A DNA stretch of 64,000 nucleotides. Source: Rhynchonema sp. JSB1_4 (Eukaryota; Nematoda; Chromadorea; Monhysterida; Xyalidae). The stretch lies in contig JASAMV010006866.1 of the NCBI GenBank assembly GCA_030248065.1, positions 29,045 to 93,044 on the forward strand, written 5' to 3'. Both the position numbers and the translations under genes were made by a program. Below the pieces are notes generated by a model, which worked only from the letters and a program-made list of their open reading frames with translations, made no database searches and was not told the origin of the DNA. Below, piece by piece: positions 18,510-62,723 of this stretch (positions within the stretch are counted from its first letter, which is position 1; the number at the start of each line of letters is the position of its first letter).

Positions 18510-21500
18510 ATGCCGCCAATTTCGACAACGGCTGACGCCGGCGGTGGAGTGCCGGGCATCAGTGTCGATTTGGCCGATGAAGAAACCGTGCACGTTTATG
18601 AAGAATGTGAATTCTGCGCGGGTCTTTTCCCGCTGCCGACGCTCGACTCACATATTCAGCTGGGACATGCGTTTGAGTGGAAGTCAGTCGTTTTTCTGAA
18701 ATTTATGTTTTTGTGGCCAGTGTGGCGGTGGCAGGCAAATGGCTGCAAGCAGAGATTAGGACCGGGCCGGCCCGGCACGGAAATTTGGAGGTTCGGGCCG
18801 GGCCTTTCAGATTCGGGTCAGTGAATTACCGTAAAAACCTAAATAGAAGGGGGGGCTCTATTAACTCACTGACCCCATTTTGGGGGGGCTCTATTACGGG
18901 GGGGGGCTCTATTCCGGGGGGGCCTCTATTAATTCACTGACCCGAACCTGAAAAATTGTTCTCAGAAATACCCCCCAAAACCCCTAAAAAGGGGTTTGAA
19001 AGGATGTTTTTTCGCTTGTAATCGCATTTATTCGTGCCTATTAGTCAATAGGAGGCGTATTATGTGCTCTGAACGAACAACAAACGTGCATAAATGTACC
19101 TGTACACCACTATCAAGCCTTAATACACTACAGTATAGGGGATGTTACTTAGGGGGGGGGCTCTCTTCCGGGGGGGCCTCTAGTAATTCACTGACCCCTT
19201 TTTGGGGGGGCTGTATTACGGGGGGGGGCTCTATTCCGGGGGGGGCTGTATGTAGGTTTTTACGGTAATAGAGCCCCCGGAATAGAGCCCCCGCATCCGC
19301 AATAGAGCCCCCCAGCCCCCCCCCCCCCCCCCAAATGGGGTCAGTGAATTAATAGAGTCCCCTTCCATTTAGGTTTTTACGGTATGCACATTTTTTGTGG
19401 GACCCAAACCCAAATGGACCCTTTTTATGGAGATGTCAAAATACCCTTTTTTGAAGAATTTTTTCCAAAAAGAGGCAAAAATCGGTCAAATTTTCTACCT
19501 CAAAAAGTGACTTTCCTGAATTTGGGTCTTCCCCCCCTTCCCCCCCAGGGAGGTACACTAACCGCACGGAAAAAAGGGGTGGGATGGGTACACTAACCGC
19601 CGCGCCGGACCAGGAACTACACTGGGCTGTCATAGGATTTCACAGTTCCTCCACCAAAAGTCTTAGGGTTTCCCAAAAGGCGGCCGGGATGATCGGCCCG
19701 AAAAGACCCGACATCATCGAATTGCAAGTTTTTCGATTTTAGTGAAAAGCTGGCTCGAGTACAAAAAAATAATCGCCACAAAACGGGCCAAAAAGCGCGT
19801 AAAACAAGTGTTTTCGACCGACTTCAACACTCTTCAAGAACACCCTCGTCACTTTGAACAAATGTTGCGCTGAAATTGTTATATTTTTCGAAATTACGTT
19901 CTTAAGTACTGAAAAAATATTTGAAAAAAACTGTTTTTTTCCGCGAAAATAAAAAACGGTTCTTTATGACAGCATAGCACTGGAAAAAACGTTTTTTTTT
20001 CAGGAAAAACCTTTTTTCCAGCTGCAACTATAGTGTTGCGTGGCACAACTTCCGAGATTTTGGACTGAATTCTTGCTCGACGTTTGGCTTTCGGGTGTGG
20101 GTCGGTTGTCATTTCGTGGCAGGGATGCTCTTGTTGTTATGCTGCCGCCAGGAATTGCGCGCTGACCTTGTCTAGATGAACCAAGTTGGGGGGTGGAGGG
20201 GGAAGTAGGGTGGGTACTGTACCATACTAGTTTTTCGCTTGCGAATTTTAATGTGGTAAGCATAGTAGTGGCTGGGGGGGGGGGTTGGGGGGGTTACCCC
20301 CCTCTCAGTACTTACCTACCACAAAACCCGAGGGGGGGTTGAGTACTTACCTCTCACAACTCCAAATCATACCTCTCACAAACAATTTTATACCTTTTTG
20401 AGGCAAAAATCGGTGTTTTTTGACCTTATTTTCCCAAAAATCGCGCGCTCCGCGCGCAAACCCACCCATAATACCTATTTTTAGGCGATTTTCGGCGAAA
20501 ATTTTGAAAAAGTACTATTTTTACCTCAATTTTTGGCCAAAATTGTATCACAAAAACGGTGTTTTTTCGCCTTTTTGGGTGACCAAAATCATACCTCTCA
20601 CGCTTCCGGTCCCAACCCCGCATCATACTTACCTCCCACACATGGGCCTGCCACTACCTGCCTGGTAAGCTCGCGCAGCACGCAATTTTTTGCACTTAGG
20701 GTTGGGTGCGAATTTTTATGTCCGACACAGGTCCAAGTACAAGGCCGGCCCCGATTCCTATTGCCACCTTTGCAGCGGCAACAACCGTCTGCTGAATGTG
20801 CACCGTCGCGTGTTCGCCGTCACCCCACTCGAGAGCAGCGTGATCTTCAAACGAGCCTCGGATTTCGACCCGCGTCGATTGGCGAAACGCGTTGAGCAGC
20901 AGGAAACGATCACGATCAAGACTGAGATTCAAGAAGCTGATGAGTTGATCAATAACGGAGCTTCGGGCGATGGCGATCAGCCAAGTACCAGCAGTGCGGA
21001 TGTGGAAGTACAGGAATGGAAATACTGCGCTGATTCGACCACCCCGCCACCGTCCAGCAGAAAACGACAGCGCAGATCTGGTTGGTCGACCTTGTTTAAT
21101 GTCAGCTACATTTATGGTCTCGGTGTCAGCGATTTCACTTGAATTGGGATGGTATTTTGAATGGTGGGATTATTCAAGACCACAAATTGCTCGTTTGAAA
21201 ATGCAAGGATGCAACACATGTATTGTCAATTGCCATTCATTGCCCAATGCTTGTGGTTTTTCAAATAATGACTGACTATTATCAATACAATCAGGCCAGC
21301 GCAAGCAACATCTGCTGTCTGCTTCTAGCAACAACAACGTCGTCACCCGGCGATCCGAACAGCGCCAATTGGCGTCGACGATTCAAGACTAAGAAGAAGC
21401 AACTGGATCGATTACGAGCTGAACGACGATTGCAGGATGAGGATGAGATGCGAATACCGCGATTGAAACATTCGGTCAAGGCCGACCCCGATGTGACTAC

Positions 21501-24500
21501 GAATGGGCCGTTCTTGTCTCCGGATGATTTCTATAAACGATTGAGTTTCATGGAGGATCTGGCTCCTGGACGGTTGGTTAATATGCTGATGGTAGATTTT
21601 TCATATTTTTGTTTGGTTTGCTAAGCTGTTGCAACTGCGGAATTGTTTATTGACTAGGGTTAGAGGTCGGACGGAAACCCGACACCTGACACCCTTCATC
21701 TGGAGGCACACGACACTTACACTCTTTTTGGCACCCGACCCCACCTTTCTTACTCGTTCATTGACCGACACACTTCGGTATATATCGAAACATTCAGGCC
21801 GCTCTCTGACAAAAGCAAAAAGTTTACAACACACTTTTTGATTTTTGCTTTTGTCAGAGAGCAAAAGCAAAAAGTTGTGAAGCGCGCACAAGCAGCAAAC
21901 ACTAGCGTGTCCCAGACCTGTGTAATTTTTGATTTTCGTTGTGCAGCCTGGTTTGGACATAAAAAGTCATGATGACTTTTTGCCTTTTTTCAAGTTTTTG
22001 CTTTTGCCTGTGACAAAAGCAAAAAGTGTGTAGTAAACTTTTTGCTTTTGTCAGAGAGCGGCCTCACAGTTCAAAAATGCATCGTGACCAAGCAAGTGCA
22101 AGAGACAAGATCAGATGCGACGATCAGAGTCTCAGTGTCAAAAATTGCTATGAAGAGAAGACCTACAATTGCTAAAAAATATTACAGAGTGATCGAAGCC
22201 GATGAATGTGAGGTGAGTTCAACAGGCAACATCACCTGGCTGCCCATGGATGATTTCAACATCAAGATTGCACTCCACTACGTGTCCGCTTGTGGAGATC
22301 GACCGTATCTCATGTCAAAACAGGTTGGTTGATTCTGCTTATGGATGTTTCGGGCAACTCACTGCTGTTACATTATTGTAACGTACCAGTGGAGTGCAGT
22401 GGGGCTAACTTCTTTTCGGAGGTCAATTGGCCAGTGGTGTTTGCACCGACGAGGCCTGGCACCTCGGCCGTATGTGAAAACAGGCCGAAACGGGCAAAAC
22501 TCGCTGCTGTCACATTATTATTACTTGTCAAACGTAGTGATCAGTTCCGCCCGAAGTTAGCAGCGTAAGTAAATCTCGAACTATCATTGCTGCAATTTGT
22601 CGCGTGAGGTAGGCAAGATCGCCGCGCTTGATGTAGTAAACACATTATCGACTGCTAAATAATAAACTTCTTTCACCCTTCAAAAATGTTCAGGTTCCAA
22701 CTCGCATTCCCACTGATCGTTCCAAAGCATTTATATTCCACACCAAAGAGGCCAAGGAGAGATATCCGGATCTCGAGTTGGCTGCGTGCAGTTTTGCTGA
22801 CTTGGAAGAAGATCCCGGTGGGAATTCTTTCTCGCATTCATTATTTTTTTTTATCACTGCGCTCCAAAACATTGGCATTAACACTGTATCGTGAAAATGT
22901 TTGTCTGTTTTCAGGGCCGCTCACTCCTCTCGGTTTTCGTCAATACATTTGTCGACTGAATATTGATGGCGATTGGGAAACGCATTCATTCGCTCTTGAG
23001 GCCGTCGATAACTTGAAACGAAGTGGATTTACGCACGTGGTTTGTGTTGTTTTGGAACTACGTCGCCGCTTGAGAGCCTTGATTGTTTTCTTACACACTC
23101 AAACACAATAATAGCAATTTATCTACTTGCAGGCATATCTGCGTTATTGGACTTTGAACTCGTGTCCCGATCTGGTGAAATTTCGTGTTGGGTTCTGTGA
23201 TGTGGATACGCTGGTGAAATTCCGAGTTAGCTCAGCATCAGCAACTTGAAGCTTATTGATTCTTATGAACTTAGTTCCTTCAATTTGAAATTCTTTTAGT
23301 CCTCAAACCCGAAGAAGAAATTCGACAACTACGACCTAGATATGGTGCACTATTGCTGGGTTGGTCAGCCGCGACGCTTCACTATTTTCGAGAAAGCACC
23401 CAAAATCAACGGATTGCTGGCGACACCGACCAAGCTGCCCGATCAGTATCACACGCACACGAATGCGGTCATAAAACGACAGACGGAGGAACTGAGAGCA
23501 CTGAGGGAACGGTGAGTGTTTTGATTTTGTGACGGTTCCTCCAGAAAAAAACGCTCTGAATGCAAGATAATGTAGTGCTGAAAGTTTGGGGACAATGTTG
23601 CTCAAAGGCAGTCGGGAATGCAAACGCTGAGAATTTGATGACAATTTTTCGACATTATGATACGAAATACAAAATAACTTGGCAAATTGTATTGTTTTCT
23701 AGTGTCGTGCAAGGTCATCCGGGTTTGCGAAGTTCGGAGCTGCGCCGAGTTGATATCAGCATGAACGGACCATTCGCACCGTTCGAGATCTTTTCGCAAC
23801 GAATGCTCAATAATCGTCATGCCATGCCGACCGAGTTGGTCTTTCTTTTGACGTCCTCAGTTTTAACTGGTAGATTGAAATGCGATCTTGCTATCGCGTA
23901 ATTTCCGGTCACTAAAGTTCGTTTAGAGTCAACAATGCACAACATGGTTGTGTTGGTAATCAGATGGCTAGCGGTATATTAGGCATCAAAGTAGCAGTTG
24001 TACAGCACATTCTCTCCTTAGTCAACCTCCGTTTGGTGAATTTCTTCGTGTAATGAAGAATAGGTTCCCAATCTACAGTCTGCCGTTTACTTCTAGTTTC
24101 GAGCGTGTCGTGAATACTTATTCTTGGACTCCCGCCTTGTCATTCACAGCAGGTGGGATCCGATCGATTCACTGAAATGAGAGTAGACTGTGTGTCGGTG
24201 TCAGTGTTACGCTACACCTCAAGTTTCAGGCTTCTTGCGCCGAGCGATTGCAAACCCGACAAAAACGAGGTCACCTGGTTGCCGCTGGAATTTCTGAACG
24301 CCAGAATCGCCGCTCAATATTTACTATCAGCCAAAGACCATCCCTATTTGGTGTCGAAGAAGATTCCTCGAAATCTGCCGAACGACCGATCGAAAGGCTT
24401 CATTTTCGACCTGTGCCGAGCGCGACAGACCGATCCGAGGGTGAATTGGGATATGGAAACGAACGTGGACTTTTGCGAACAACACGGCAACGTCGGCGTC

Positions 24501-25620
24501 GGTTGGTCAGAGTTTTTACATTTTGTAATTTTATGTTTATCTTTTATTTTATTTTCTCTCCGAGATACTTTTCATTGAGATTATCAAAAAATAAAACACC
24601 ATGTTCGCAAAGCTCTCATCTCTTCACTTTTCCATTTTATCGTGTGTGCTTCCAGCAAACAATGAACTTCCAGTTTGCAGCTTGTTATTTTGTGATAAAT
24701 CATGGGATTGCGTTTGGGCACTTGCGTATCATTAAACCGAACAGCGTGTGCGTTGTTTTCAGAAGGTTCGCACAAGATCCGTAATCAGGCACTGCAAATC
24801 CGCGTTGATTATCAATTGCACGCGTGTTATATGGATGTGGATGGCAAGGTGCAGACGCGAAAGTATGAGTACAACATCAGACGTAAAGCCAAGCAACAGC
24901 ACTGGATTGAGAAAAGCACGCATATTGTTAGTGGTCTTGGGTTTGTTTTCTTTATTTTTGCACTTTTTATCAACACCAAATATCTTTGTAGATGCGACTA
25001 TCCTATTCGTACATGCGAGCATGCCCGGATTTGGTTAAATACCGTTGTTGCATCACAACCAAGGAATCGTATTTACAACAAGAAGTGGGTTTCTTCTCCG
25101 TTTTGTTTTTGTCATACACATGCTTCGTGACAAAAAATTCAAACTAATCTTTATTCAGAACTGTCGCAAACTGACCGGAATGTACTACTCCGGCGCCAAG
25201 CACACAACGAAGTTCGATATGGTACTGATCTACTATTTCTGGATATGGAATCCACGCCCTTTCCGTCTCGTAGGGTATAAGGTTAGTTACTTTTGAATTG
25301 TTCTGTAATGATGTTACAAGTTTTGTTTTGCATAAAATTAACATTGCAGCTCGTTTGTGAAAACAGGTCGAAACGGGCAACATGAGCAGGCTGTACAATT
25401 CACATTACAGGTGACACCAACATCAGAATGGGACAAAGGCCCGCTGCAGCGATCGAAGAAGAAGCAGCGAAACTCGCTGCCTTCGCCGGGCTCGGACTCG
25501 ACTGACGCTGGGCAGGAACCTGCAGATCAGTATATGCAACCTGGCGCAGACTATGACGCGACCATGGAGGATGAATCGTTATTGGGTGTATTGGCTGCTA
25601 ATGACTTGCCGTCCGCATAA
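18510..25620 (+). CDS. array gene 1: zinc-finger double-cassette protein
   Basis: Exons 18510-18682, 20731-21080, 21329-21572, 22188-22323, 22694-22817, 22915-23036, 23133-23225, 23300-23511, 23703-23834, 24230-24501, 24763-24926, 24992-25084, 25159-25281 and 25411-25620 join without a phase error into about 815 residues. Residues ~31-55 hold a C-x2-C-x11-H-x4-H finger (CEFCAGLFPLPTLDSHIQLG). A linker with a nuclear-localisation-like RKRQRR follows. Two cassettes follow (from exons 3 and 9), with landmarks NGPF, ITWLP or VTWLP, PYLxS, CPDLVK and a tyrosine/tryptophan-rich motif ending PRRFTI or PRPFRL. The last exon gives an acidic tail (DATMEDESLLG). Intron 1 (2 kb) is packed with G-run, hAT-like and LINE remnants; the Harbinger-like MITE 21797-22063 sits in intron 3. 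In cassette 2 two exons (WLP and DRSK parts) are fused. I know no family with this cassette. Confidence 0.8.
18829..19382. mobile_element. G-run inverted-repeat element 2 (composite)
   Basis: The ends CCGTAAAAACCTAAATAGAA and the complementary right end are flanked by TA. Inside are repeats of GGGGGGG-CTCTATTA type and, near 19250-19266, an extra internal copy of the terminal sequence, so two elements appear joined or nested. It lies in intron 1 of array gene 1. Confidence 0.6.
20031..20180 (-). mobile_element. LINE fragment (same element as 28297-29169)
   Basis: About 150 bp match an internal part of the LINE at 28297-29169, including the region encoding FLAAAQLREHPCHD. The reading frame is interrupted. 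It lies in intron 1 of array gene 1. Confidence 0.6.
20265..20660. mobile_element. hAT-like G-run element, degenerate copy
   Basis: The left side reads TAGTGGCTG followed by long G runs and a TTACCCCCCTC segment; the right side ends GCCTGCCACTAC. The interior has the short TACCTCTCACA-type repeats seen in this family's relatives. No target duplication is preserved. It lies immediately upstream of exon 2 of array gene 1. Confidence 0.4.
21797..22063. mobile_element. PIF/Harbinger-like MITE with AAAAAGC repeats, copy 2
   Basis: This has the same GGCCGCTCTCTGACAAAAGC termini as the copy at 16357-16771, here flanked by a perfect TCA duplication. It is 267 bp, shorter than copy 1 because fewer AAAAAGC heptamers are present. 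It lies in intron 3 of array gene 1. Confidence 0.75.
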
Positions 25621-26033
25621 ATTTTGTATATTTTTTGCAAAAAAACATACATTCTTGAAAAAATTGACAAGTTTGCAAAATATGAATCTTGTGCACATAG
25701 AATGTTTTCGTACTGTATCCTGTTATGTTCTTCTTCTGTGGGTTGGCTGTGTGGTGCAAAGTTGTTCACATTTCATTAGGTTACTATTCTTGTCTTGATC
25801 CATAGGCAAATGTTCTCTTGTACTATTGTGATTTTTTTGGTCGTGGTATGTGTGCAAGTTTTGTGATTTCTTTTTCTTCATTTTTGATAAAAATTCTGTC
25901 TATTCGCAGCTATGTACATTTTCATAACGAAATGGTTACCGTATGGCTTCCTGGACGCCTATTTATGAGCGTCGTACTTTCTCCCATAGCGAATGATAAA
26001 AATGGCTACATTGATTAATTTTTCATCCCAAGA

Positions 26034-29000
26034 ATGTCTCGTCCCCTGCTTCCTTCCGGTTCTGGTACTGGTACGCCAGTGAAAGTCTTCGAAGAATGCC
26101 AATTCTGCACTGGTTTATTTCCGCTGATAACACTTGACGCACACATTCGATTGGGTCATGAAGCTGAGTGGGAGTGAGTTTGGCAATTTGGTTGTTGATT
26201 GAGTTGGTTTGAATCGCTCGGCTTTGAGTGAATTCGTAAGCGCGGGCAGTCTTGCTGGTCTGTCAATAGTAACGTCGATTTTTGCCGTTCATTGAAATTA
26301 CGACATGCTATTGCTCAGGAAGTTGTGAAATTACACGCTGCTATTTGAGCATGGCACAATACCTGTTTCTATGTTTTATACACATCTATGCATATAAGTA
26401 TTTCTGTACGTTATATTTATGCCCAATCTTTATATTCATATTCCAGAAGCAACAATCGTCTACTGAGCCCGATTCGTCACGTATTCGCCGTCAAGCCCCT
26501 GGACAGCCGTTCGATCTTCAAGAATCCACTTGAATTTGACCCATTACGTTTGGCACGAAAATGTCGGGCACTGGCCCCTGCAAAGAACGGGGATAAAACA
26601 ACACCGAATGTCATAAAGAAGGAACCTTGTGTCACCCCGGGAGATGCCACTCCATCTTCTTCCCATAATCGAAAGGAGGCCACGAGCATTCGGGCTATCG
26701 AAAAAACCGAACCCTCTCCCTGTACGGACAAGGTGATTGTGCGCATGTCACCGGTGCCCGACTCCGACCATGACGCCGATCCTGCTGAACCCGACTCAGA
26801 TCACGACTCGGATGCCAGTTATATGGACGAATCGAGGAAGAGAAAACGAAAGAAAAGGGAGGACGACAAGATGGAACCACCGGTGCAAGACAAGGAGCCC
26901 TGGAGGGAAGAGATACCGGACGGAGACGAGCACCCGCAGCCATACGTCGGCCAGAGACCAGGATTCGAACGGTTGATGTCTGAGATTTCAGCTGACATCA
27001 GTTGCAATGGACCTTTCGCATCGACGGAGAAATTCATCAGACGAATGCATGAGATGAAGGATGCGAAATTTGTCAGGTTGGAATGTTTATTTGAACATTT
27101 CTTGTCTAAACGTTTCAGGTTGATGTGTTGATCGCTAAAACGATTACTGTTTTCCCTCTTTGGGGCGCACAGGCACAGCCAAGGCCGAAACATACCAAAA
27201 AAATTTGAAAAGTAAAAAGCAGAATCGATGAACGTTTCGAAGTGTGTATGCGCCCTTTTTAGTCACATGATCGGGGCTGGCCATTTTCTCGCAGTGAAGA
27301 ACATCTACTATTCTGACATGTACAACGTCGAATAGGGCATAAGGGACCAAACTGTAGGTCGTTGTGTTTTCACTGTATGCTGGAGCTGGAGCAAGATCAC
27401 CGTAAAAGGAACCGATTGAACAATTTCTTTCCAAATTCAGAGTTCTACAACCGCTACAATGCGAGACCACATCAACGGGTGTTACGTGGCTGCCCCTGGC
27501 CAACATGAATGTCTATATAGCACTCAGTTACATGTCTGAGTCGAGAAATCATCCGTACCTTCTGAGCAGCAAAATGCCCGCTCGTGTGCCCACCGACAGG
27601 TCAAAGGCGTATCTTTTTGATGTGGATGCAATTAGACAACAAAAGCCCCAGGCGCGCATTGATCTGAGAGGGGATAACAAGGATTGCGGTAGGTGTTAGG
27701 GATTGGGATGTTGTTAGTGAGACTGGCGGCAACTTGAACTTAGGTATTGGCCCGGTTTTGCTTTGAGCACTTTTCATTAGTACACAACCGGCATGAAAGG
27801 CTTCATTAATATACATAAGTATGGATCGGATTTGGCTGTGGGTGTGTGCTACCTCCAACCGCGTGGGTGTGGGTTTGTGTTGCACTATAGTTGCAATTTT
27901 TCCGGAAAAATATGTTTACTGAAAAAAACCGTTTTTTTTCGATATTTTTTCGAGCCAAATTTGGGCACCGGTTCAAATGGTGTATATTTGACACATCATG
28001 CGCTAGAAATGGTGTATGAAAAGGAATCCTGTTCAGCAAGTGCGAGTAAAAGGGCTGGAAAACACTTGAAAAAGTATGTTTCTGCAGTAAAACTGGGTTG
28101 TTTCCCATAATTTTGACACTTTTTCAGAAAAGTTCAAAACCCGCCGTGCAATTGTTCCGGAAAAATATATTTCACTGAAAAAAACGGTTTTTTTTCGTTT
28201 TTTTTCAGGAAAAAAAACCGTTTTTTACCTGCAACTATATGTGGCACTGACAACTGTGATTGATTGATTGTTTGCCAACGTTCGGTTGTCGTGGTCTCAT
28301 TGTTGACTGAAGATGTCCGACAGATCTTCTGCGCATTTGATCGGGTTACGCCACAGATCGTTTAGGCTCGTGGATACGGGTCGGCTCTTGCAACGAAACA
28401 GATGTTCGACCGTGTCAGGCTCGGTGCAGCATCGAGGGCACACGTTTGGTATGTTTGGGTCGATGCGATTGCGATATGAGTTCAGCATGCGGCAGTGCCC
28501 ACTGCGTAATTGCGCCAGGGTGCATCTTGTACGCCGATCCAGCGACTCTTCTTCTGGGTTGATGTCGGGTGGTTTGGTGCCCAGGACCCGATTGACGCTG
28601 AGTGCCGCCTTGTCCTGGGAGACGAAGTCTGTGTGGATCGCTTTCAGCGTTTTGCCGTAGTCGTACTTCTTCTTCGTCATTATGGTGTTGCATTGTACAA
28701 CTTCCGCGAATTTGGACTGAAAAGTAGGTCGACGTTTGGCTTTCGTGTGAGGGTCAGATGTCGTATCGTGGCAGGGATGTTCACGAAGTTGCGCTGCCGC
28801 CAGGAATTGCGCGCTGACCATGTCGAGATGGCGGTTGACAGTCAGCTGCTTGCACTCTTGGTGAAGGTGGTCTGTATTTGACATCAGATGACAGCCGGAA
28901 ATGACCCTCAACGCGGCATTTTGGGCTGGCTGGATGCGGTCAATGCCCTTCTTGTTCGCGGTTGGTTTCCATACCGGCGCAGCGTAGTTTATTATAGACT

Positions 29001-32000: not shown

Positions 32001-33190
32001 CAGAGTAAAGTGCTGCTTTTTGGGCCATGAAATAAGCTTTTTTCTTGAAAGTACGCCAGTGATTGCTGCAGGTGTGGTGACAGATCTGCGCAATGAGTAC
32101 AAACTGTGTCGACAGCAGCCTGATGGCAAATGGCATTTCACACAAGTCACCGCGCGGGAGATGGCCGAAATGGATGGTGATGATGTGGATCTTAGTGGCG
32201 CTTTTGTGGTTGGTCGCAATGTTTCATGCTGACATGATCGGCGACCGGCAGTTTTGGTCTTCAATAGACAATGCTCACTTTAACTAAATTAGAAAATTAA
32301 CTGCGGATTGGGACGAAAATTTGCTCACTCTCAAAGGGCGCAACGGTAATGACATGTTTCGTTTCGATGAAATGAAATGTAATGAAATGAATAATGCAAG
32401 AACATTGCAACCAGTGTTTTCTTTGTTGCAGCTTCGTGCCAATCAAAATTATTGTCGTTCTTGTCCCGATCTATTGGTGTCGCGGTACGCGGTTGTCAGT
32501 CTCAAACTGTTCATCGAGCAAAGCGTGAGTTTCCTTTGTCTGTTAGTCACATCGTTATGGGCGAGGTTTTATCTCCGCTGAATTGAAGTTGACCCTTAGA
32601 AACATGATCTAATCGTTCTTGCAAACCATAATCGCAGAAACATCGCCTGGAAGCGGGTGAGATGGAATTGGGCAAACATTCGCGCAAGAATCCGATGCGG
32701 TTCGACTACGCAATGACGCATTACTTCTGGGTCGGTCCGCCACGACGGTTTACGATCATCAAACCGGTGCGAAAGTTCAAAAAACCACAAGGTCAATTTG
32801 GTTGGGGTGGGGAAATATTTTGTCACAAGTGGTTAAATTCGAGGATGTTGTTGTAGTTCAGTTTTGTCGATTGATCTGGAGAACAAAAGTTCAGGTTAAA
32901 AAAGAAAATAATGTATTGGTGTTATAGCGTTGGTCGAGACTAGTGGCAGGCATTTGAACAGATCAAATAACGGAAGGCAAAAATGTGCCGTCAAATGATT
33001 TTCAGGCGTGGCTGCGTACTGGCTCAAAGTTCGTCGGCGGAGGGAAGGTCTACCGAGCTCGGATGATGAATCAGAAGCAGAAGAAGCGAACGACAGTGGG
33101 GATAACGGCAAAACATTGGATATGGTTGGGAATGGATACGATGCAACCTACGAGGATGAAGAGTTGATTGGGGAATTTGAAGGACTTTGA
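26034..33190 (+). CDS. array gene 2: zinc-finger double-cassette protein
   Basis: Twelve exons (26034-26173, 26447-27076, 27441-27688, 29470-29603, 29942-30034, 30374-30648, 31048-31179, 31575-31819, 32072-32208, 32432-32524, 32638-32791, 33006-33190) join in frame into about 821 residues. The finger is CQFCTGLFPLITLDAHIRLG with the second His next. Exon 2 fuses the linker exon and the cassette-start exon that are separate in genes 1, 3, 4 and 5; it encodes a long acidic, Ser-rich linker with a basic patch (RKRKKRE). In both cassettes the WLP/IPL and DRSK/NKSS parts share one exon. Cassette landmarks include VTWLPLANMN, VPTDRSKAYLFD, SCPDMVK and VVYYCWVANPRPF. The tail is acidic (YDATYEDEELIGEFEGL). 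The 1.8-kb third intron contains the LINE at 28297-29169 and a MITE. Function unknown. Confidence 0.8.
27885..28246. mobile_element. TATAGTTGCA inverted-repeat element
   Basis: The left end TATAGTTGCAATTTTTCCGG and the right end (complement TATAGTTGCAGGT) bound ~360 bp rich in AAAAAACGGTTTTTTTTC words, which also form internal hairpins. A related right end lies at about 19940-20030, again directly beside a LINE fragment. No coding capacity. Confidence 0.5.
28297..29169 (-). mobile_element. 5'-truncated non-LTR retrotransposon (Jockey-like LINE)
   Basis: An open frame of 290 residues matches the C-terminal third of a LINE reverse-transcriptase ORF. It includes the post-polymerase region with KSIINYAAPVWKP, NAALRVISG and HLDMVSAQFLAAAQLREHPC. 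It ends with a CCHC-like region CPRCCTEPDTVEHLFRC and a short tail. Those landmarks are typical of Jockey-clade elements. The polymerase catalytic motifs and the endonuclease are absent, so the copy is 5'-truncated and dead, though the remaining frame is intact and therefore young. It is antisense inside the third intron of array gene 2. Confidence 0.8.
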
Positions 33191-48307: not shown

Positions 48308-51300
48308 ATGAATTTCCCCCAACTGGACGAGGAGGTTAACGTTTACAGCGAGTGCGAATTTTGCACCGGCCTGTTTCCATGCGAAGCGATTGAAGTCCAT
48401 GTGAAAGTCGGGCATGAAACTGAAACTCGGTTGGTTGATGATTTTTATTGTCTCCTAATATTCTACGAAACGAGCATGCTTGTTATTTCAGGGATTTCAA
48501 AAATGCCAAACTACACCCAATACGCCGTCTGTTCGCAGTCACCGAACTAACGGACAAGCCCCAATTTGATGGCAGTATTGTCAAGAGGGAGCAACGTACA
48601 CATCTTGGATCCACGACCGAAAGAGCAAAAGGGAAAACCGGATCGGATTCCGAAAATCAGCGTCCCGATATGGTGACGCCGGGAACATCGGGCCTGAACC
48701 ATGATCATCAACGTGGACAACGGTTGACCAATGGTGTACATGAACCATCAGGTCAGTTTTTGTTTTCTTTTTTTGTTCGTGAAGAGAGTAATGTAAAGGC
48801 AAACTACGCCAACACGAGCCCTATTTCGGAAGTGGTGTGCTTGCAAAAACGAATAGAAAAAGAAAATCCTCATGCGCCACGTATTCTACAACGTGTAAGA
48901 TTTCCCAAATCAGCAGCCACGTATGAATGTTTCACTAATCTGCCCACTCCGAAATCGGGCTCGTGTTGGCGTAGTGTTACTACAACAGCAGTGAGTTTTG
49001 CGCGTTTCGGCCTGTTTTCCCCAGTCAAACTAGTGAAAAATATTTGAAAACACTCGACTTATTTATCCGTTTTGTGAAGTAGTTTCGTTAGTTTATTGGT
49101 TGGTGGCAGGCACTCGCTGGAAGATCATTTTTCCACAAATGTGTTTTTATCAATCAAGTGAAATATTTTCACATGAACAACAGTGAACGAGACGGTATTG
49201 ACCAGCCATTTTCGGCCTGCATGAAAAATCTGTACTTTGTAATATGGTCATTACCATTAGTTGGCTGCGGAAAAATTGGGCAGCAAGGTACCATTCAAAA
49301 CTTTTCACTTTATCGATGGTCTCACAAAAAAGAGGGTACACTGTACTTCCAGTCACCACGAGACGATCGGCACGTCAAAGTGCAAGACGAGTGAAACCGA
49401 ACTGGTATCACGATGCGGCCAGTGGATCAGAGTCCGATAGCGCAGATGTGTTGGAATCGGTATTGGCTGCTGCGACCGCGGAACAAAGTGACTCGTCAAC
49501 TTCAGTCCCACCGACTAAGACCAGGAGGAAATCTGGCAAGAAAAAGAAGAACAGCGCTGCTGCTAAATGGAAAACGAAGAAGGCCAAAGGTAATGACTTT
49601 TTGTTTGATACGATTTGATTTTCTTCTATCCATCAGTGTACGTAAAATGCACACATTCACGTTGTAGTGATATGATCGGAGTTCGTCATTTTCGGTCCCT
49701 TTTTTGAATATATTCACCATACTTGTAACCTGATAATTAGGATAGTAACGGCAGATTGAAAACCAAAATGTAGCTCAAAACGTTTCCAGTGAGCGTCATG
49801 AAGAACGTAAACTGCACTTTGAAAATTCAGGCAATTGCAAAGCAGATGTTTCACTGGCTGATGACAGTGAGGTTGGCGCTAGTGCACTGGCTTATGCGCG
49901 AATTACGGATGCGGACAGACGAGCTGAAGCGACAAGGTTGGGATACGATAATCAAGTGAATGGACCGTTTGTGTCGTTGGACGTTGTGCGTGAACGATTG
50001 GATGAAATGAAAGATTCAACAGATATTTGGTGGGTTGTTGTACACTAACTTTTTTTATTTTTAGTGTGTGGTTTTATTAGAGCATGCCAGTGGCGTCGTG
50101 GGGTAGCCCCCTGCCATGGACTGTGGGAAATTTTCGATTACCCAACTTCCCGGCTGCCTCTAATGTGACTCTTTTTGTAGTGTTGTACTAGACGGGACCC
50201 GTGCCTACGGCCCGGCTACAGCGCCGCGCCCGTGCCGTGCCTGGCCTGAGAAGGACGGAAGAAAAAAAGAGGAGAGGAGGTCAAGAAGTTGAAAATAATC
50301 TCAGTTCATTGAAATCAAATCAGTGAGAAAATGAAAAGCGAAATGGATGGAAAGGAAAAACGATGGAAGCAAAAAGAGGGTTAAAAGAAGAATAGGAGTA
50401 AAGGAAAGAAAAGAGTGAAGCGTGGTGGAAAAGAAACGGAAGATAACAAAGGGGAAACGGAGTTAAAAATAGGAGGGGAGAGTGGAAAATGGGCTTGAGA
50501 AAGGTGGGAGGGAAGGGAAAGAGGAGGGGAGGTCAAGAAGGGGGGAAAGGGAATTGGAAAAAAGAAGGAAAGAGAAGAGAAAAGGGAAGGAAGGGGGAAA
50601 CGGAGTTAAAAATAGGAGGGGGAGAGTGGAAAATGGGCTTGAGAAAGGTGGGAGGGAAGGGAAAGAGAGGAGACTGGCCTGAGAAAGACGGAAGAAAAAA
50701 GAGGAGGGGAGGTCAAGAAGGGGGAAAAGGGGAATTGGAAAAAAGAAGGAAAGAGAAGAGAAAAGGGAAGGAAGGGGAAGGGAAAGAAAAAGGGAGGGAA
50801 GGAAAGGAAAGAGAGGAGAGTGAAAATTGGAAAAAGAAGGAAAGAGAAGAGAAAAGGGAAGGAAGGGGAAAGGAAAGAAAAAAGGAGGGAGGGAAGGGAA
50901 AGAGAGGAGAGTGAAAAGAGAGGGAGGGGGCCACAGACAGACAGACATACATACATACATACATACATACATACATACATACATACATACATACATACAT
51001 ACATACGCCTTCCTGTTTTAGTAGTATAGATGTTGATTATCCTTTAGTGACCGAAGGTGTTAGGTCCCCTGGCACTGTGTGAAGGGAGTTGGCGATAGTG
51101 CTTATATCATCATCAGATCACAACATATTTTTTTGAAAAAGCTCGAGAATAATTTGCAGCCTGCCATCCTCATCTGATTGCAAACCCAGCGTTTCCGGTG
51201 TCCGCTGGTTGCCTCTACCCCTGATCAATGACAATGTTGCCAACACGTGCCTTCTCACTGCTAGGGGATCACCATATTTATTGTCGGACGGTCCATGCCT

Positions 51301-54300
51301 GGATGTACCAACCGATCGGTCAAAGGGCTATATTGTGGATTTGGGAAGATCTCGATCGAAGAAAGGAGATATCGATGAAGATGTGGATGCGGACAATGGT
51401 GGTTGGTTGCTTTGCCTTGAATGTGGGTTCCACCTCCAAACGAGGACCAGTCCCTTGCCTTACCATTCAGGTATATGGGAGCAACTGGCATCGAGATATA
51501 TAAATGTGGATGCAACACGCAATCAGTTATTCGGGTCGCGAATTACGGACGTTTCGGATGCCAAAGCGAATTCAAATGCGACTCACGTGGTGAGTTTTGT
51601 TCTACTTTTGTCGCTAGTGGAATTTCCTGAACGTTTGGCATTGAGAATGAGATCAATCCTGCACATTTATGCGATAAAGATGAATTCTATGAAATGCTTT
51701 GTCATGTCCAGGTATTGGGTCTGAAGTTTTCATGTGTATCAGGGTCCTCACCTAAACCACGAAAAGAATTTATAAAATTCCGAAACAAACGCATCGATTG
51801 CAGTAACAGTCTGCTTCCGGCCAAAAAACGTCAATGCTTTGGTTTGGTCATGGTTCGACCGTTGTATTCGCACAAAATAGGTCATACCGCAGGAGTGGTG
51901 TGAAAAAACGTGACAGATCCCGCCCTTTGAAATACTGTTATATGTTTGCTGTCGTCCCAAAAAATAGTGGCGATACGATCATCGGAATAATGCAATTCTG
52001 TCAAAAATGTGATATAATCATGATCTGTTCATTTCAGCTGCGCACTCTTGTGTCCGTCAACGTTTCATGTCCGGATCTGCGCAAATATCGATATTTCATG
52101 ATCTCGCGTGACGACTTTCTCTCACAACGAACAGCTCACAATCCAAAATTGCCCCTTTCACATGAATGCCCAATTCGATACGATTTGGTGTTGGTCTATT
52201 ATCTGTGGTTCGGTCCTCCGCGCTCTTTCCAACTTCTGCAAAATGGAGCTATCGAGTTTCTCAGAGGCAAACGACGTTACAGGAGAGCTATACGGTCGGT
52301 ATTTGCCAGTATTTTGTTTTTCTTTGCCAATTGATAGCATCGTTCCAACGCTTCCCTGAAACTAAAAATCATATAAATGAACCAGTTGAAACATTTTGTA
52401 ATCCACTCATGACGTGATCAGTGCACTATGGCTTACATGGGACATAACAACAAATTCGATCCACTCCTATCCATTAGTTTCGACGATGATCTGGCCTGTC
52501 TGTAAAACTGGCTCGGGCTTCCCAAAAAACCGTACAACTCAAACTTCGCCAGCCGTTTGCAGCCCCTCACAACCGAACGGATTTGCATCGAGCAGCAATG
52601 GCAGTCAGTCAGTGCCGGGTGCCGATCGACGTTTCTACGTGTCGGAATTCCCTGATTCTGAAAGGCGGCAGTTGGCCAGAGAACTCGGCTTTGATAATAG
52701 CATCAATGGACCATTTGCCACAGTGGATCAGGTGAATCAACGGCTGAAGGAGGCAAAAATGGCCGTGCCAAATGGGTTGGTGTGTGGTGTGGGCGAAATG
52801 AGGGAGGTTTTTTTGGTGCTGGGCTCACTTGTGGCAACCTGGTGCATTCGCACTGATGGTGACCTGATGCACATCGGCTTGTGATAACAAGACAAAACTG
52901 GCTAAACTGATTGCATCAATGTACATCCGCGAAACATCGGGTGTGTGTCAGTGTATGTGATGGCGCTGTTTTTGGTCAGTTTGTTCCCAAAGCGTTGCCT
53001 GATTCTTAAACCGCGCGCAATATACAGCACAGTACAGCTGGTAATCAGGTCCAGGTCGAAATATAATGCCAATCACAACACAACTCTTCACCCGCTTTCC
53101 CTCTATCAGTCAGGCAACGAAATTTGAGAGTAATTGTTCGAAAACCAAGTGCATTGTCGGCAGATGGCTCTACTCGGCCGATTTTTCACGCCATAATGTC
53201 GATATTGAACGTACAAGTGGTTTGCGACAAAACATTATTCTGTTTCATCTTCATCCACTTCTTACAGTGTTCTCCAACCACATCAATGCGAGCCATCAGA
53301 TACACTGGTCACCTGGCTGCCCCTGCCCTGTATCAACTCCGAGATCGCAGCGCAATACTTCCTTGCTGTGCCCACACACTCGTACTTGATGTCACCCGCT
53401 GAGGAAATTACTGCCGGTTCGGTTGAAGTTTCATGGTTGTTGTTTTGGTTTGTTTCTTATTTGTATTGAACCACGCAGTAATGCGATTACTCAGCTGTCT
53501 ATTTTGACGATACACGCAACGCACGAATTATTTTCTATTTGCTGTACCTATTTTACAGGCAAAGTGCCAACGGACGGCTCAAAAGGCTTCATGTTCGATC
53601 TGGCCCGTGCGCGCAACAAACAGCCGAGCATACATTGGGAGATGGAGATTGCCAGGGATGACGGAGGTCAGTGTTTGCTACATTTTGTTGTGCTGGTGAA
53701 TTTTTCAAAAGGTGTTACCTGATTGGCAAAGCGCATTAGATGACGCATATGTTCTTGACTACAGCTGTTACGTGATGGGCAGCGTAGCTGACCCTATTTT
53801 TCAACATCGATAGCTTAGCCCAGCCCTTGGATCAGGCAGTGCGTATTCGCGTTTTTTGCGCCATTTTTTAGGATTTTTTTCTGCTCAGCTAATCCGTTAC
53901 AATCCAAAATAAATCGCGTAGTGTTCCCAGTAAAACGTCAATTCCAAAACATTCATCCAGGTCGCTGGTACAAATGTCAGAAAAAAAGCTTCGATGTCTA
54001 TCAATTAGCTGATGGCTCGGTGCAAATTTCCAACATTCAAGATCATGTCAGAGACGTGTGTGGACCGACCTATGTGGTGAGTGCGTTTTTCGTTGTTTTA
54101 TTCCACGTTTTTATCAGCTTGCTGATTTTTCTGACATGAAATGCCATTCTGAAATGGTGTCTGATACCGACCATGCAAAACATTGCTTTCGTTCTGGCTG
54201 GACAACCTTATGGCCCGTTCCCAAGCAAATTCTCAAATTCCCAAGTTCTCGAAAGCGTAACGCACGTTGATCATGAAAACTTCCAGCTGGCTGACCTCAG

Positions 54301-57300
54301 TTTGTTGCGAACAACAACGTTCTTCAACCCACGCAAGTTTTTGGGAGTACTAGGACATTCACGCGACGAGGTGGAGAGCGTGCGACCTATCAAATATACT
54401 GTTGTGGACCCCCCTCCGCCTCGGTGGCGGTGGCGATTTTGAGAATTTGGGCCTATTTCGATCAGTTGAAGAACAACTTCTTGCAGTGGCGGATCCAGCT
54501 TTTGGCCAAGGGAGGGGCCAAATCCAAAAAGTCATTTTTATCTAGTGCTTGTTCCTTTTTTGAAAAGTCATTTTTATCCAGTGCTTGTTTAGAATTCCTC
54601 GTTTTTACACCAAATCTATACTACTAAAACAGGAAGGCGTATGTATGTGTATGTATGTATGTATGTATGTATGTATGTATGTATGTATGTCTGTCTGTGG
54701 CCCCCTCCCTCTCTTTTCACTCTCCTCTCTTTCCCTTCCCTCCCTCCTTTTTTCTTTCCTTTCCCCTTCCTTCCCTTTTCTCTTCTCTTTCCTTCTTTTT
54801 CCAATTTTCACTCTCCTCTCTTTCCCTTCCTTCCCTCCCTTTTTTTTTCCCTTCCCCTTCCTTCCCTTTTCTCTTCTCTTTCCTTCTTTTTTCCAATTCC
54901 CCTTTTCCCCCTTCTTGACCTCCCCTCCTCTTTTTTCTTCCGTCCTTCTCAGGCCAGTCTCCTCTCTTTCCCTTCCCTCCCACCTTTCTCAAGCCCATTT
55001 TCCACTCTCCCCCTCCTATTTTTAACTCCGTTTCCCCCTTCCTTCCCTTTTCTCTTCTCTTTCCTTCTTTTTTCCAATTCCCTTTTCCCCCTTCTTGACC
55101 TCCCCTCCTCTTTCCCTTCCCTCCCACCTTTCTCAAGCCCATTTTCCACTCTCCCCTCCTATTTTTAACTCCGTTTCCCCTTTGTTATCTTCCGTTTCTT
55201 TTCCACCACGCTTCACTCTTTTCTTTCCTTTACTCCTCTTCTTCTTTTAGCCCTCTTTTTCCTTCCATCGTTTTTCCTTTCCATCCATTTCGCTTTTCAT
55301 TTTCTCACTGATTTGATTTCAATGAACTGAGATTATTTTCAACTTCTTGACCTCCCCTCCTCTTTTTTTCTTCCGTCCTTCTCAGGCCAGGCACGGCACG
55401 GGCGCGGCGCTGTAGCCGGGCCGTAGGCACGGGTCCCGTCTAGTATTATGCAAAATGTGACAAGGAAAGTTTGGCACTTTTAACGCGCGCTGATTTTTGG
55501 ACCTTTAACGTTTTTTGGCCAACCCTGCATACAAATAATTGCGCATTGCGTTCCAGCTTCGTATGGCGTATCTGCTCAACATCGCGTGTCCCGACCTGCG
55601 CAAGTACTACTATTTCTGGACCACCCGCGAGTCCTATTGGACGCGACGTGCACAAACACGCGCCAATCAAGAGATCAAATATGATCTGGCATTCATCTAC
55701 TATTTCTGGGTCGGCACGCCACGACCGTTTCAACTGTTGTCTGCCGGAGCGTTCGATTTCTTTTTCGAACAACGAAGTTTCAGTGAGGGTTTTGTGAGGT
55801 GAGGTCACATTCGGCACTTTTACTGCTTGATCGCGTATTTAATTCTGCCCGTGGTCGTGTCATTGGACGTGTAATAGGAATAATCCTGATGGCTGGTTTG
55901 TCAGATGTGCGAAGCATTCTAGTTCAAATTACTAAGCGCTGGAAATCTTTTTGCGTTTAACTTAATGTGAGCACCACCCTGGAAACAGATGCTTTTAACA
56001 TTCATTGTATTTGGTTGTTGTCAAAAAGATTGAAGAAATACATATTGCCGAAATATTATAATTGTGAGAAACAAACCAGCAAAATGTGGCATATCGGACA
56101 CAAAAGAGGACAAGGGGTGATATTTTCGAAACGGTGTAACGGTCAGTTGGGTGTAAAGGTCGGTGGAAAGCTCGGTCGACAGCTCAGTGTGATAGACCTC
56201 GGTGTAAACTTGAAACATTCCACGTTAATAACAGGCAATATTTCACGTTTACACCGAGCTACGCCGACCGAGCTTTCGACCGAACTTTACACCGACCTTT
56301 ACGCCCAACTGACCTTTACACCATTTCGAAAATTCCACCCAAGGACAAAATGTTGTCGTTTGATTTTGCATCCAAGTATTGCTTCAATTATGAAACAGAA
56401 ACAGTAGTCAGCCAGTTGTGCACTGGCCGTCGTGAACCACACGTGTTACACATTCGGGCGTGACAAATGATACAGCTGGCTGAGGTTTCATGGATGAGCG
56501 TGTTATTTGGGATACGGATAAAACAGCGGGTACTGAAGGCAGCTATCTTTGTCATTAGGCTTGAGCCTTAGGCTTGGGCTTGTGGTTAGGCTCAGGTTAG
56601 GCTTAGGCCTCAACTACCGTCAGCGAATATCTACTCCAGTGGCTGCTGTCTTTCGAAAACCACTGTTTTGGCCCCCGCTGTTTTGTCCGTGACACTATTA
56701 TTTATGTGAAAGTGCTGTGATGCCAAGTCGAAATGAACGTCATGAACGCTGCCTTTCATTCAGAAAGCGCAAACGTCACAGCGGCCCGCTTATTCGAATG
56801 CCTCAACAACTTCGAATTCATATTCGTGAACGCTTGAAGGGCAAATCAACGAGTGAAGTCACACAGGAATTAATGGTGGACCAGGATGCAAGGGAGAAAT
56901 ACCATTTGGAGAGATTCACTGAATCGCAGATTAATGGAATGGTTGGTGTACACAGTCTCTCCTCATCATAATGACATTAGCGGGACTCGTGGCATGCAAT
57001 CCCGTGCTCTCTTAAATGAATGAAGGAATTATTGTTTTCAATCCAATTTTAATATATGTACATTCATTATGTATTTCCAGGTCCGCGTCTGCGCCGAGTA
57101 CACCACTGAAACGTACCAAAAACGTCAGAAAGAGAAGCGACAAGCAGCCGCCATCAAGGATGTGCATGCGATGACGTCACCTGTGGTTGATCGGTTGGTT
57201 GTGCTCTCTCTTCATGCATTTCATTTTGGTGCCCGGTTGTCAAGCTTAGTCACATATTGGATTGAATATTCAATATCTACCTTGGTTTAGCGTCACTTTT

Positions 57301-57645
57301 TTATCGGATTGTCGTACGCTCACCAAATTTTCACAGCAGCTTAGTAACTTCAGTGATCAGCCAGCTAGATCAGTACCGTTTTTTTATAAAAATGGTCTAA
57401 AACGGTTTTTAGCGTTATTAAGCTACTCTGAAAATTTGGTGCGCCTAAGACAAGGAGTGAGCTCATTCTGACATGGCTACGCGACCTGTGGTACCTTAGA
57501 GCCCAAATCTTTGTTATTTTTCAGCGCCACAACACGAGACGACGAATGGTTAGCGTCTTCGTCTTACAACCCTGGGCTCGAAGATGAAGCCTTTTTCACT
57601 GAACCGCCAAACCCGATCACGCCCAATGCCAGACGCAAAAAGTGA
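48308..57645 (+). CDS. array gene 5: zinc-finger double-cassette protein
   Basis: Fifteen exons: 48308-48429, 48492-48751, 49353-49589, 49831-50029, 51160-51401, 51471-51589, 52038-52294, 52563-52775, 53268-53416, 53559-53666, 53922-54076, 55557-55798, 56764-56941, 57081-57193, 57525-57645. All phases agree; about 904 residues, the longest member. The finger is CEFCTGLFPCEAIEVHVKVG followed by His. The basic linker reads TRRKSGKKKKNSAAAKWKTK. Unlike genes 1-4, the CPDL and YYFW parts are fused into one exon in both cassettes (52038-52294 and 55557-55798). The C-terminal part gains two extra exons that encode a charged helical segment (RERLKGKSTSEVTQELMVDQ) before the usual acidic tail (YNPGLEDEAFFTE). 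Two near-identical Helitrons in opposite orientation lie in its introns. Cassette divergence is greatest here, especially in the tryptophan-bearing part. Confidence 0.75.
48796..48978. mobile_element. AAGGCAAACTACGCC MITE, copy 2
   Basis: The left end is intact and preceded by TA; the interior matches copy 1 (40970-41157). The right end keeps GGGCTCGTGTTGGCGTAGT but has lost the final bases. It lies in an intron of array gene 5. Confidence 0.65.
50089..50165. mobile_element. hAT-like element remnant
   Basis: A short piece begins CAGTGGCGTCGTGGGG and continues with the CTGTGGGAAATTTTCGATTA word shared by the hAT-like family. No right terminus was found. Confidence 0.4.
50188..51030 (-). mobile_element. 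non-autonomous Helitron, long copy 1
   Basis: On the minus strand it starts TCTATACTACTAAAACAGGA and ends with the palindrome ACGGGTCCCGT followed by CTAG, inserted between A and T. The 843-bp interior is an (ATGT)n microsatellite (about 50944-51006) and a long purine-rich tract on the plus strand. It has no Rep/helicase frame; the long open frames across it are low-complexity. It lies in an intron of array gene 5. Confidence 0.85.
50944..51006. repeat. (ACAT)n microsatellite inside Helitron
   Basis: About fifteen perfect tetranucleotide repeats near the 5' end of the minus-strand Helitron. The corresponding array in the copy at 54615 is shorter. Confidence 0.9.
54484..54614. mobile_element. 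possible hAT/TIR element end
   Basis: The word CAGTGGCGGATCCAGC is a common terminus of hAT-like elements and is followed by an internally repetitive sequence (TCATTTTTATC-AGTGCTTGTT twice). No matching right end is visible because the Helitron at 54615 follows directly. Confidence 0.3.
54615..55443 (+). mobile_element. non-autonomous Helitron, long copy 2
   Basis: It starts TCTATACTACTAAAACAGGA and ends ACGGGTCCCGT-CTAG between A and T. It is nearly identical to the copy at 50188-51030 but in the opposite orientation, with differences mainly in the microsatellite and in small indels of the pyrimidine tract. It ends ~110 bp before exon 55557-55798 of array gene 5. Confidence 0.85.
56115..56340. 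mobile_element. GGGTG inverted-repeat element, copy 2
   Basis: It is the same length (226 bp) and nearly the same sequence as the copy at 40375-40600, flanked here by a perfect AAG duplication. It lies in an intron of array gene 5. Confidence 0.75.
56555..56608. repeat. cluster of TTAGGC hexamers
   Basis: Five TTAGGC words occur within 54 bp, separated by related words (TTGAGCC, TTGGGCTTG, TCAGG). TTAGGC is the telomere repeat of many nematodes, so this could be a decayed interstitial telomeric patch or a simple-sequence coincidence. Confidence 0.4.
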
Positions 57646-62490: not shown

Positions 62491-62534
62491 CTGAAAATAA
62501 ATAGTCTGACAATTTTTAATTAATTTTTATTGCT

Positions 62535-62719: not shown

Positions 62720-62723
62720 TACC

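What the first reader, a model, noticed from the sequence alone, without database searches (positions are those of the whole stretch)
18510..57645. Five tandem paralogues of an unrecognised finger-plus-double-cassette protein family
Seen: five head-to-tail plus-strand genes, each with one C-x2-C-x11-H-x4-H finger exon, a basic linker, two copies of a 270-300-residue cassette and an acidic tail. Cassette landmarks in order are NGPF, T-W-L/I/F-P-L, PYLxS, VPTDRSK-like, a W-containing strand, CPDL, and YYxWxxxPRPF. About 70 exons join with consistent phases. I know no described domain with this motif series. Inference: a lineage-specific nuclear family under recent expansion.
Basis: partly seen in the sequence, partly recalled or inferred. 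Interest (0 to 1): 0.92.

Follow-up and report, generated by a model that had tools for sequence, protein, structure and literature searches.

The report
Worm finger genes with unknown domain
A nematode genome carries head-to-tail arrays of genes that share a zinc finger and mostly an acidic tail; the five here fill the middle with two copies of an unrecognised protein domain, while sister arrays fill it with zinc modules that look DNA-binding, which suggests, without proof, that the unknown domain binds DNA or chromatin too.

Summary
The window has five head-to-tail genes, each with one C-x2-C-x11-H-x4-H finger, a linker, two homologous cassettes of about 220 residues and an acidic tail. The finger regex hits five times in six frames and the tail motif five times, alternating; 20 shuffles gave neither. 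Cassette introns share positions and phases. Four close paralogue pairs give dN/dS 0.20-0.42. The organism is a nematode. The family is larger: 76 finger hits on 26 contigs, one strand on all 13 contigs with several. The five are old (25-37% identity, dS saturated), so 'recent expansion' is not supported. The cassette reached no Pfam cut-off and had no relative in the protein, viral or phage searches; fold comparison of two fragments was inconclusive. New point: four sampled sister arrays share the finger, three also the tail, but carry other middles: a C-C-H-x-H module resembling FAR1/FLYWCH, or an RYYR-CCHC-like module, all below Pfam cut-offs. The double cassette thus fills the slot of a DNA-binding-type module. 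Best guess: nuclear DNA/chromatin-binding regulators, roughly a worm analogue of KRAB-ZFP or ZAD-ZNF arrays. Function is inferred, not shown.

The parts
18510..25617 (+). Gene A: finger, FAVT motif, linker, two cassettes, acidic tail
   Evidence: Spliced alignment; finger; tail
18606..18668 (+). Finger of gene A (CEFC...H....H)
   Evidence: C, C, H and H invariant in 20 of 20 fingers aligned
21484..23398 (+). Cassette A1 (exon span)
23746..25269 (+). Cassette A2 (exon span); its exon 24231-24500 was folded
25552..25587 (+). Acidic tail motif of gene A (YDATMEDESLLG)
26079..33172 (+). Gene B
26097..26159 (+). Finger of gene B
26988..30478 (+). Cassette B1 (exon span)
31091..32757 (+). Cassette B2 (exon span)
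33137..33172 (+). Acidic tail motif of gene B (YDATYEDEELIG)
33583..41721 (+). Gene C (linker exons uncertain; end is the end of the open frame that holds the tail)
33613..33675 (+). Finger of gene C
35200..38078 (+). Cassette C1, with a degenerate NGPF block
38522..41293 (+). Cassette C2 (exon span)
41566..41604 (+). Acidic tail motif of gene C (YQADMEDETYFDE)
42435..47937 (+). Gene D
42465..42527 (+). Finger of gene D
44293..45837 (+). Cassette D1 (exon span)
46130..47532 (+). Cassette D2 (exon span)
47902..47937 (+). Acidic tail motif of gene D (YQAYLEDEVLYE)
48326..57642 (+). Gene E (exons between 55800 and 57500 uncertain; end is the end of the open frame that holds the tail)
48353..48415 (+). 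Finger of gene E
49941..52247 (+). Cassette E1 (exon span); its exon 52038-52247 was folded
52678..55736 (+). Cassette E2 (exon span)
57565..57597 (+). Acidic tail motif of gene E (YNPGLEDEAFF)

Best explanation
These are five genes of a large, tandemly arrayed nematode gene superfamily. Shown from sequence: a constant N-terminal CCHH finger, mostly followed by an R-x-F-A-V-T-like motif; a basic/acidic linker; an exchangeable middle; and, in the cassette arrays and three of four sampled sister loci, a constant acidic tail. In this window the middle is two copies of an undescribed domain of about 220 residues. Inferred: the proteins work in the nucleus; the middle binds DNA or chromatin, as the FAR1/FLYWCH-like middle of the sister arrays probably does; and the finger and acidic tail contact shared partners, so that each gene is a regulator whose target is set by its middle. 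Inferred and least certain: the arrays serve a fast-turnover task such as silencing repeats, as KRAB-ZFP and ZAD-ZNF arrays do.
For: Shared ends: a finger query finds 76 finger rows on 26 contigs, and the tail motif lies on the gene strand in 12 of 12 hits in six other cassette contigs and 8 of 8 hits in three sister loci. Different middles: an invariant C-C-H-x-H in 8 of 8 sister modules aligned. Of seven such module peptides scanned, three match WRKY-GCM1-type Pfam families, all below cut-off: FAR1 1.7e-4 in one, FLYWCH 0.15 in one, FLYWCH 0.14 with AFT 0.045 in one. RYYR-CCHC 7.7e-6, 26.2 bits against a cut-off of 27, in the C921 gene. Cassettes are real coding units: shared intron positions (34, 29 and 24 of 38 cassettes), dN/dS 0.20-0.42 in the four of 171 pairs above 45% identity, W, P, P, C, D and W invariant in 38 of 38. 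Basic runs in linkers: 43 against 3.4 expected. One strand in 13 of 13 contigs with two or more fingers.
Against: No localisation, binding or expression data exist. Cassette profiles do not match the sister modules (hhalign probability 0.1-0.2), so a like function rests only on the like position. 7 of 19 genes show no basic run in the stretch tested. Four of the seven sister modules scanned matched no WRKY-GCM1-type family, and unrelated families scored about as well as FLYWCH (Sec23_BS 0.0044, DUF7039 0.052). The finger scores best, weakly, to XAF1_C (E 0.00057), which would also fit a protein-binding finger. No tail motif was found in the RYYR-type locus L032, and the tail exon of gene A does not align with the L031 C-terminus beyond chance (1516 of 2000 shuffles reach it). 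Fold comparison of the two fragments was inconclusive.
Confidence: 0.5

Rival explanations
1. The arrays are a domesticated or decaying DNA transposon: the finger and cassettes are leftovers of a transposase, multiplied by transposition rather than by tandem duplication.
For: The sister middles resemble FAR1/FLYWCH, which are linked to Mutator-type transposases (FLYWCH origin from PMC10027918 passages). Fingers sit on many contigs.
Against: MULE DDE and above-cut-off FLYWCH were found only on C2915 and C5047, on none of the 26 finger contigs. All 13 contigs with two or more fingers are one-stranded. Genes have many introns at shared positions and the close pairs show purifying selection.
Confidence: 0.15
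2. The finger is a ubiquitin- or protein-binding finger and the proteins are adaptor or immune-type proteins; the cassettes bind proteins or peptides, not DNA.
For: XAF1_C is the most frequent Pfam family for the finger (10 of 20 members; best E 0.00057). A single finger per gene is unusual for a DNA-reading C2H2 protein, and large fast-turnover arrays are also typical of immune genes (both recalled).
Against: XAF1_C scored under its cut-off wherever bits were shown (13.5-17.1 against 25.8). Basic nuclear-type runs and DNA-binding-type sister middles point to the nucleus.
Confidence: 0.2
3. A selfish toxin-antidote type family, in which the paralogues spread by harming non-carriers.
For: Arrayed, without known relatives; such systems are known in other nematodes (recalled).
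Against: Each unit in the window is one gene with the same ends. I did not search for a recurring partner gene, and nothing tested here supports the idea directly.
Confidence: 0.05
4. The models are partly false: unrelated exons were joined, or some of the five are pseudogenes.
For: Gene C needs many small linker exons and has only a degenerate NGPF block in cassette 1. Gene E has 0.8-kb inverted repeats inside its introns and uncertain exons before its tail. 102 of 224 introns modelled inside cassettes are not at shared positions. No RNA-seq was at hand.
Against: Exactly five fingers and five tails alternate, the same order of blocks recurs in 14 genes modelled on other contigs (one of them, C1194, without its finger in the piece fetched), and shared intron phases support the joins.
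Confidence: 0.1

Closest known systems
FLYWCH / FAR1 (WRKY-GCM1-type) proteins, transposase-derived transcription factors
   Same: Sister arrays with the same finger and tail carry a C-C-H-x-H module; three of seven scanned score weakly to FAR1, FLYWCH or AFT.
   Different: The cassettes of the window lack these ligands and do not align with that module; no MULE DDE match on finger contigs.
RYYR-CCHC domain (PF23674)
   Same: A spliced gene of the C921 sister array scores E 7.7e-6, just under the cut-off.
   Different: No match of the cassettes to it; no paper found under that name.
ZAD-ZNF and KRAB-ZFP arrays
   Same: A constant N-terminal module with a variable DNA-binding part, clustered, lineage-specific (PMC7655104 abstract; PMC4592553 and PMC7289599 seen in the listing only; domain order recalled).
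   Different: One finger match per gene instead of a finger array; no KRAB or ZAD match in Pfam for six proteins; target binding unknown.
XIAP-associated factor 1 C-terminal domain (PF18608)
   Same: Best weak Pfam match of the finger (E 0.00057).
   Different: Below cut-off wherever bits were shown; other XAF1 features were not looked for.

Membership tests
Classical C2H2 zinc finger | C-x2-4-C-x12-H-x3-5-H spacing (spacing recalled) | tested here: inconclusive
   Found C-x2-C-x11-H-x4-H, ligands invariant in 20 of 20; one of 20 members matches zf-C2H2_4 at 0.052 and one zf-C2HC_2 at 0.0039
XAF1_C (PF18608) | Score above Pfam gathering cut-off of 25.8 bits | tested here: inconclusive
   13.5-17.1 bits where shown; the best E of 0.00057 came without bits
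WRKY-GCM1-type (FLYWCH/FAR1), for the cassettes | C-C-H-x-H metal ligands | tested here: not met
   Only one Cys is invariant in 38 cassettes and no HxH pair stands among the conserved Cys/His columns; profile comparison probability 0.1-0.2
WRKY-GCM1-type (FLYWCH/FAR1), for the sister arrays | C-C-H-x-H metal ligands | tested here: met
   Invariant in 8 of 8 modules aligned; a ninth, incomplete one was left out
WRKY-GCM1-type (FLYWCH/FAR1), for the sister arrays | Pfam score above the curated cut-off | tested here: not met
   FAR1 22.7 against 28.1; FLYWCH 12.7-12.8 against 23.6; AFT 14.5 against 21.6; four of seven modules matched none of them
MULE transposon | DDE transposase domain in or beside the copies | tested here: not met
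   Two genome-wide matches, C2915 and C5047, neither a finger contig
KRAB-ZFP / ZAD-ZNF | KRAB or ZAD domain and an array of C2H2 fingers | tested here: not met
   One finger match per gene; no such Pfam match in 6 proteins
Nuclear regulator (function) | Nuclear localisation and nucleic acid binding | not testable with these tools
   Only basic runs and position of the middle module
Any known fold, for the cassette | Structural match of the predicted model | tested here: inconclusive

The most novel reading that the evidence does not exclude
The double cassette is a new class of DNA- or chromatin-binding domain that has taken the place of a transposase-derived zinc domain inside a module-swapping nuclear gene superfamily. 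In this lineage these arrays would do the work of KRAB-ZFPs in vertebrates or ZAD-ZNFs in insects.
Probability: 0.3. Interest if true: 0.85.

Novelty: new variant of a known kind. Interest (0 to 1): 0.62.

Why it matters
If the reading is right, a nematode lineage built its own arrayed family of nuclear regulators by holding the ends constant and swapping the middle, and one of the middles is a domain with no recognised relative. That would give a new domain family to solve and a further independent case, beside KRAB-ZFPs and ZAD-ZNFs, for asking what drives clustered regulator families. Even without the functional reading, 76 finger matches on 26 contigs of one genome belong to an architecture that no library searched here names.

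Tried and rejected
Recent expansion of the five: rejected, dS saturated in all 10 window pairs. Homology of cassettes with the FAR1-like or RYYR-like middles: not found (only 4 sequences for each of those modules). Homology of a helical piece of gene E (about 56.7-57.0 kb) with the helical module of the sister arrays: looked likely by eye, but of 8 comparisons the best were reached by 28 and 33 of 1000 shuffles and the others by 135-924, so I dropped it. The joined C-terminal pieces of E and two L031 genes align better than shuffles (7 and 3 of 2000), driven by the tail; the same test failed for E against L032 (1654 of 2000) and for the gene A tail against L031 (1516 of 2000) (pieces chosen after looking). 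A zinc site in the cassette: cysteine and histidine columns do not co-occur beyond chance except one pair at p 0.043 of six tests. Pfam HCV_NS1 at 0.00062 on gene A, residues 333-431, which lie in cassette A1 (19 bits, cut-off 27; one of six members), and MGDG_synth, RCDG1, Get5_C, PP_kinase_C: below cut-off and on single members, taken as chance. Sec23_BS 0.0044 (18 against 33.5), Tox-REase-7 0.16 (12.7 against 25), DUF7039 0.052 and NICE-3 0.095 on sister modules, U3_assoc_6 0.0091 on an L031 C-terminus, DUF5730 0.014 (15.8 against 25) on the gene E piece at 56.7-57.2 kb: likewise. PDB matches of the sister profile: the best is a designed protein at 0.0073, over another part. Homologues elsewhere: none in three protein searches (in one search only the 8000 candidates with most shared words were scored), one viral scan with a single peptide pattern from the TWLPL exon (34 stretches matched the pattern, none confirmed), phages with one exon frame and PHROGs (one member at 0.03). 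How well nematode proteins are represented in the protein collection is unknown, so absence elsewhere is weak evidence. The canonical SL1 leader is absent with one mismatch allowed, so I could not place the nematode further; the 18S search did not complete.
Full report
What was checked. The window is G000:C4218:29045-93044 of a 204-Mb assembly in 5747 contigs. It is a nematode: Col_cuticle_N, the nematode cuticle-collagen domain (its restriction to nematodes is recalled), gives 57 matches, and TTAGGC arrays occur 393 times on one strand and 305 on the other, against 0 for the reversed pattern. The 14 control genomes gave none, but those named are prokaryotes, so they say little. The canonical SL1 leader was not found with one mismatch allowed, so the order within Nematoda stays open.

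The genes are there. A finger regex C..C.{11}H.{4}H hits exactly five times in the six frames of the window, all on the + strand, and never in 20 shuffled windows. I wrote a small GT-AG spliced aligner, seeded it with exons of gene A, and iterated on a profile of the five genes. It returned five genes in the same order of blocks: finger, R-x-F-A-V-T-like motif, linker, cassette, cassette, tail. The tail motif Y.[AP].{1,2}EDE hits exactly five times, at 25552, 33137, 41566, 47902 and 57565, alternating with the fingers, and in none of 20 shuffles. The motif was written after seeing window and sister tails, so the window count is partly circular. Its 12 of 12 gene-strand hits on six other cassette contigs are a fairer test, although three of those tails had been in view in the models.

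The cassettes are homologous coding units. I extracted 38 cassettes from 19 genes: five from the window and 14 of 21 modelled regions elsewhere; seven poor or partial regions were dropped. Cassette-1 and cassette-2 profiles align over 212 columns with probability 100 and E 1.8e-72. Introns recur at the same column and phase: column 29 phase 2 in 34 of 38, column 155 phase 0 in 29, column 186 phase 0 in 24, column 112 phase 1 in 15; 122 of 224 introns inside cassettes lie at positions shared by three or more. The remaining 102 are scattered, probably in part because the aligner adds small false exons. Six positions are invariant in 38 of 38: W45, P47, P79, C165, D167 and W207. Median pairwise identity is 30%. 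The tree is mixed: in A, B, the C5202 genes and C844 the 13 second cassettes group together (support 63) and 12 of 13 first cassettes do (70), but in E (100), C1194 (98) and C2491 (74) the two cassettes of one gene are sisters, and the four of C and D form one group (99). So cassettes were duplicated or homogenised more than once.

Age and constraint. All 10 pairs of window genes have 25-37% identity and saturated dS, so this is not a recent expansion. The four pairs above 45% identity, of 171 pairs among 19 genes, all lie within C5202 and have dN/dS 0.42, 0.20, 0.22 and 0.33, with dS 0.9-1.8, as expected for genes kept by selection; with dS that high the ratios are rough.

The family is large. 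A finger plus FAVT query finds 84 places at E 1e-3 or better; 76 cover the finger, on 26 contigs; on 13 of 13 contigs with two or more fingers all lie on one strand. Some contigs may be allelic copies, so 76 is not a gene count, though the tool states that counts of large families are lower bounds. A cassette exon query finds 55 places.

The middle is exchangeable. I sampled four 10-kb pieces of arrays on contigs without a cassette match. All four have the same finger; the RRxFA[VC]T motif was seen in three of them (L031, L032, L034). On C3398, C1861 and C3705 the middle is a module with C-C-H-x-H invariant in 8 of 8 aligned modules, some joined by eye across exons; one incomplete module was left out. 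Of seven modules scanned, one scores FAR1 1.7e-4, one FLYWCH 0.15 and one FLYWCH 0.14 with AFT 0.045, all below Pfam's cut-offs, and four match none of these. Other single-module scores of the same strength (Sec23_BS 0.0044, DUF7039 0.052) show that these E-values alone prove little, so the ligand pattern and the agreement of three related families carry the argument. That these three families belong to one WRKY-GCM1-type group is recalled. On C921 a spliced gene scores RYYR-CCHC 7.7e-6, 26.2 bits against 27. The tail motif is present in the first three loci (8 hits, all on the gene strand) and absent from the C921 piece. MULE transposase and above-cut-off FLYWCH occur only on C2915 and C5047, not on finger contigs, so the arrays are not Mutator elements as such.

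What the cassette is not known to be. No Pfam family reaches its cut-off for six full proteins; the strongest match, HCV_NS1 at 0.00062 on cassette A1 of one member, is below its cut-off and taken as chance. NCBIfam gives none at E 0.1 or better and PHROGs only one weak match (0.03). The best PDB sequence match is E 2. No candidate passed in three searches of 5.8 billion proteins, which scored 8000 (a capped list), 681 and 21. A viral-contig scan with one pattern and a phage search with one exon gave none. Profile comparison with the sister middles fails. Two AlphaFold pieces had best mean pLDDT 80 and 78 but disagreeing models; their fold comparison was inconclusive.

How it most likely works. 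Shown: constant ends and exchangeable middles. Linkers carry basic runs, 43 against 3.4 expected, in 12 of 19 genes, which suggests nuclear import; 7 of 19 have none in the stretch tested, and in two genes (C, C5202_5) that stretch runs into cassette 1. The sister middles look like DNA-binding domains of the FLYWCH/FAR1 kind, which other animals have recruited from transposases into transcription factors, with species-specific expansions (PMC10027918, passages). From equal position I infer that the double cassette also binds DNA or chromatin, and that the finger and acidic tail meet common partners. Large clusters that evolve in this way recall ZAD-ZNF genes (PMC7655104, abstract) and KRAB-ZFPs (search listing). 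The main rival is a protein-binding family: the finger's best weak match is XAF1_C, and a single finger is little for reading DNA.

Novelty. I found no description. Paper searches for nematode lineage-specific families with zinc finger and novel domain (10 of 42 papers listed), RYYR-CCHC (none), FLYWCH with MULE or nematode (12 of 1547 listed) and FLYWCH with FAR1 and expansion (8 of 11 listed) showed none in their listings; most subscription papers are not held. I file it as a new variant of a known kind, an arrayed finger-family with an unrecognised middle domain, and leave open that the domain itself is new.

Noticed in passing
L031 (C3398:6000-15999), L033 (C1861:3000-12999), L034 (C3705:46000-55999): Sister arrays: same finger and tail, but a C-C-H-x-H module (FAR1/FLYWCH-like) and a helical-looking module (Q-F-E-x-Y-...-H-H-E-K-L-L-R-x-R-P-x-F) in the middle.
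   Followed up: partly
L032 (C921:1800-11799): Sister array with an RYYR-CCHC-like middle (Pfam E 7.7e-6 on a spliced gene); no tail motif seen in this piece.
   Followed up: partly
50186-50983 and 54648-55445: A 798-nt inverted repeat, 99% complementary, with both arms inside introns of gene E; contains purine-rich and ACAT repeats.
   Followed up: partly
28300-29181 (-) and 19897-20136 (-): An ORF of 294 aa in an intron of gene B that looks by eye like the end of a non-LTR reverse transcriptase, with a second fragment in gene A (55% identity over 49 residues); no Pfam match at 0.01.
   Followed up: partly
40371-40667 and 55961-56404: Two copies of an unknown repeat, about 95% identical over 75 residues as translated, in gene C and near the end of gene E.
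   Followed up: no
40856-41192, 48442-49058, 62524-62881: A repeat present three times, the third copy in opposite orientation.
   Followed up: no
11510-11917 (-): Cysteine-rich reading frame resembling a trypsin-inhibitor-like (TIL) domain, E 0.044, below cut-off.
   Followed up: no
G000:C5315:40670-40954: Two exon matches of 88-89% identity to the last cassette exons of a C5202 gene, probably a younger duplicate (part of that query was altered by me).
   Followed up: no
whole genome G000: Nematode with TTAGGC arrays but no canonical SL1 spliced leader found.
   Followed up: partly
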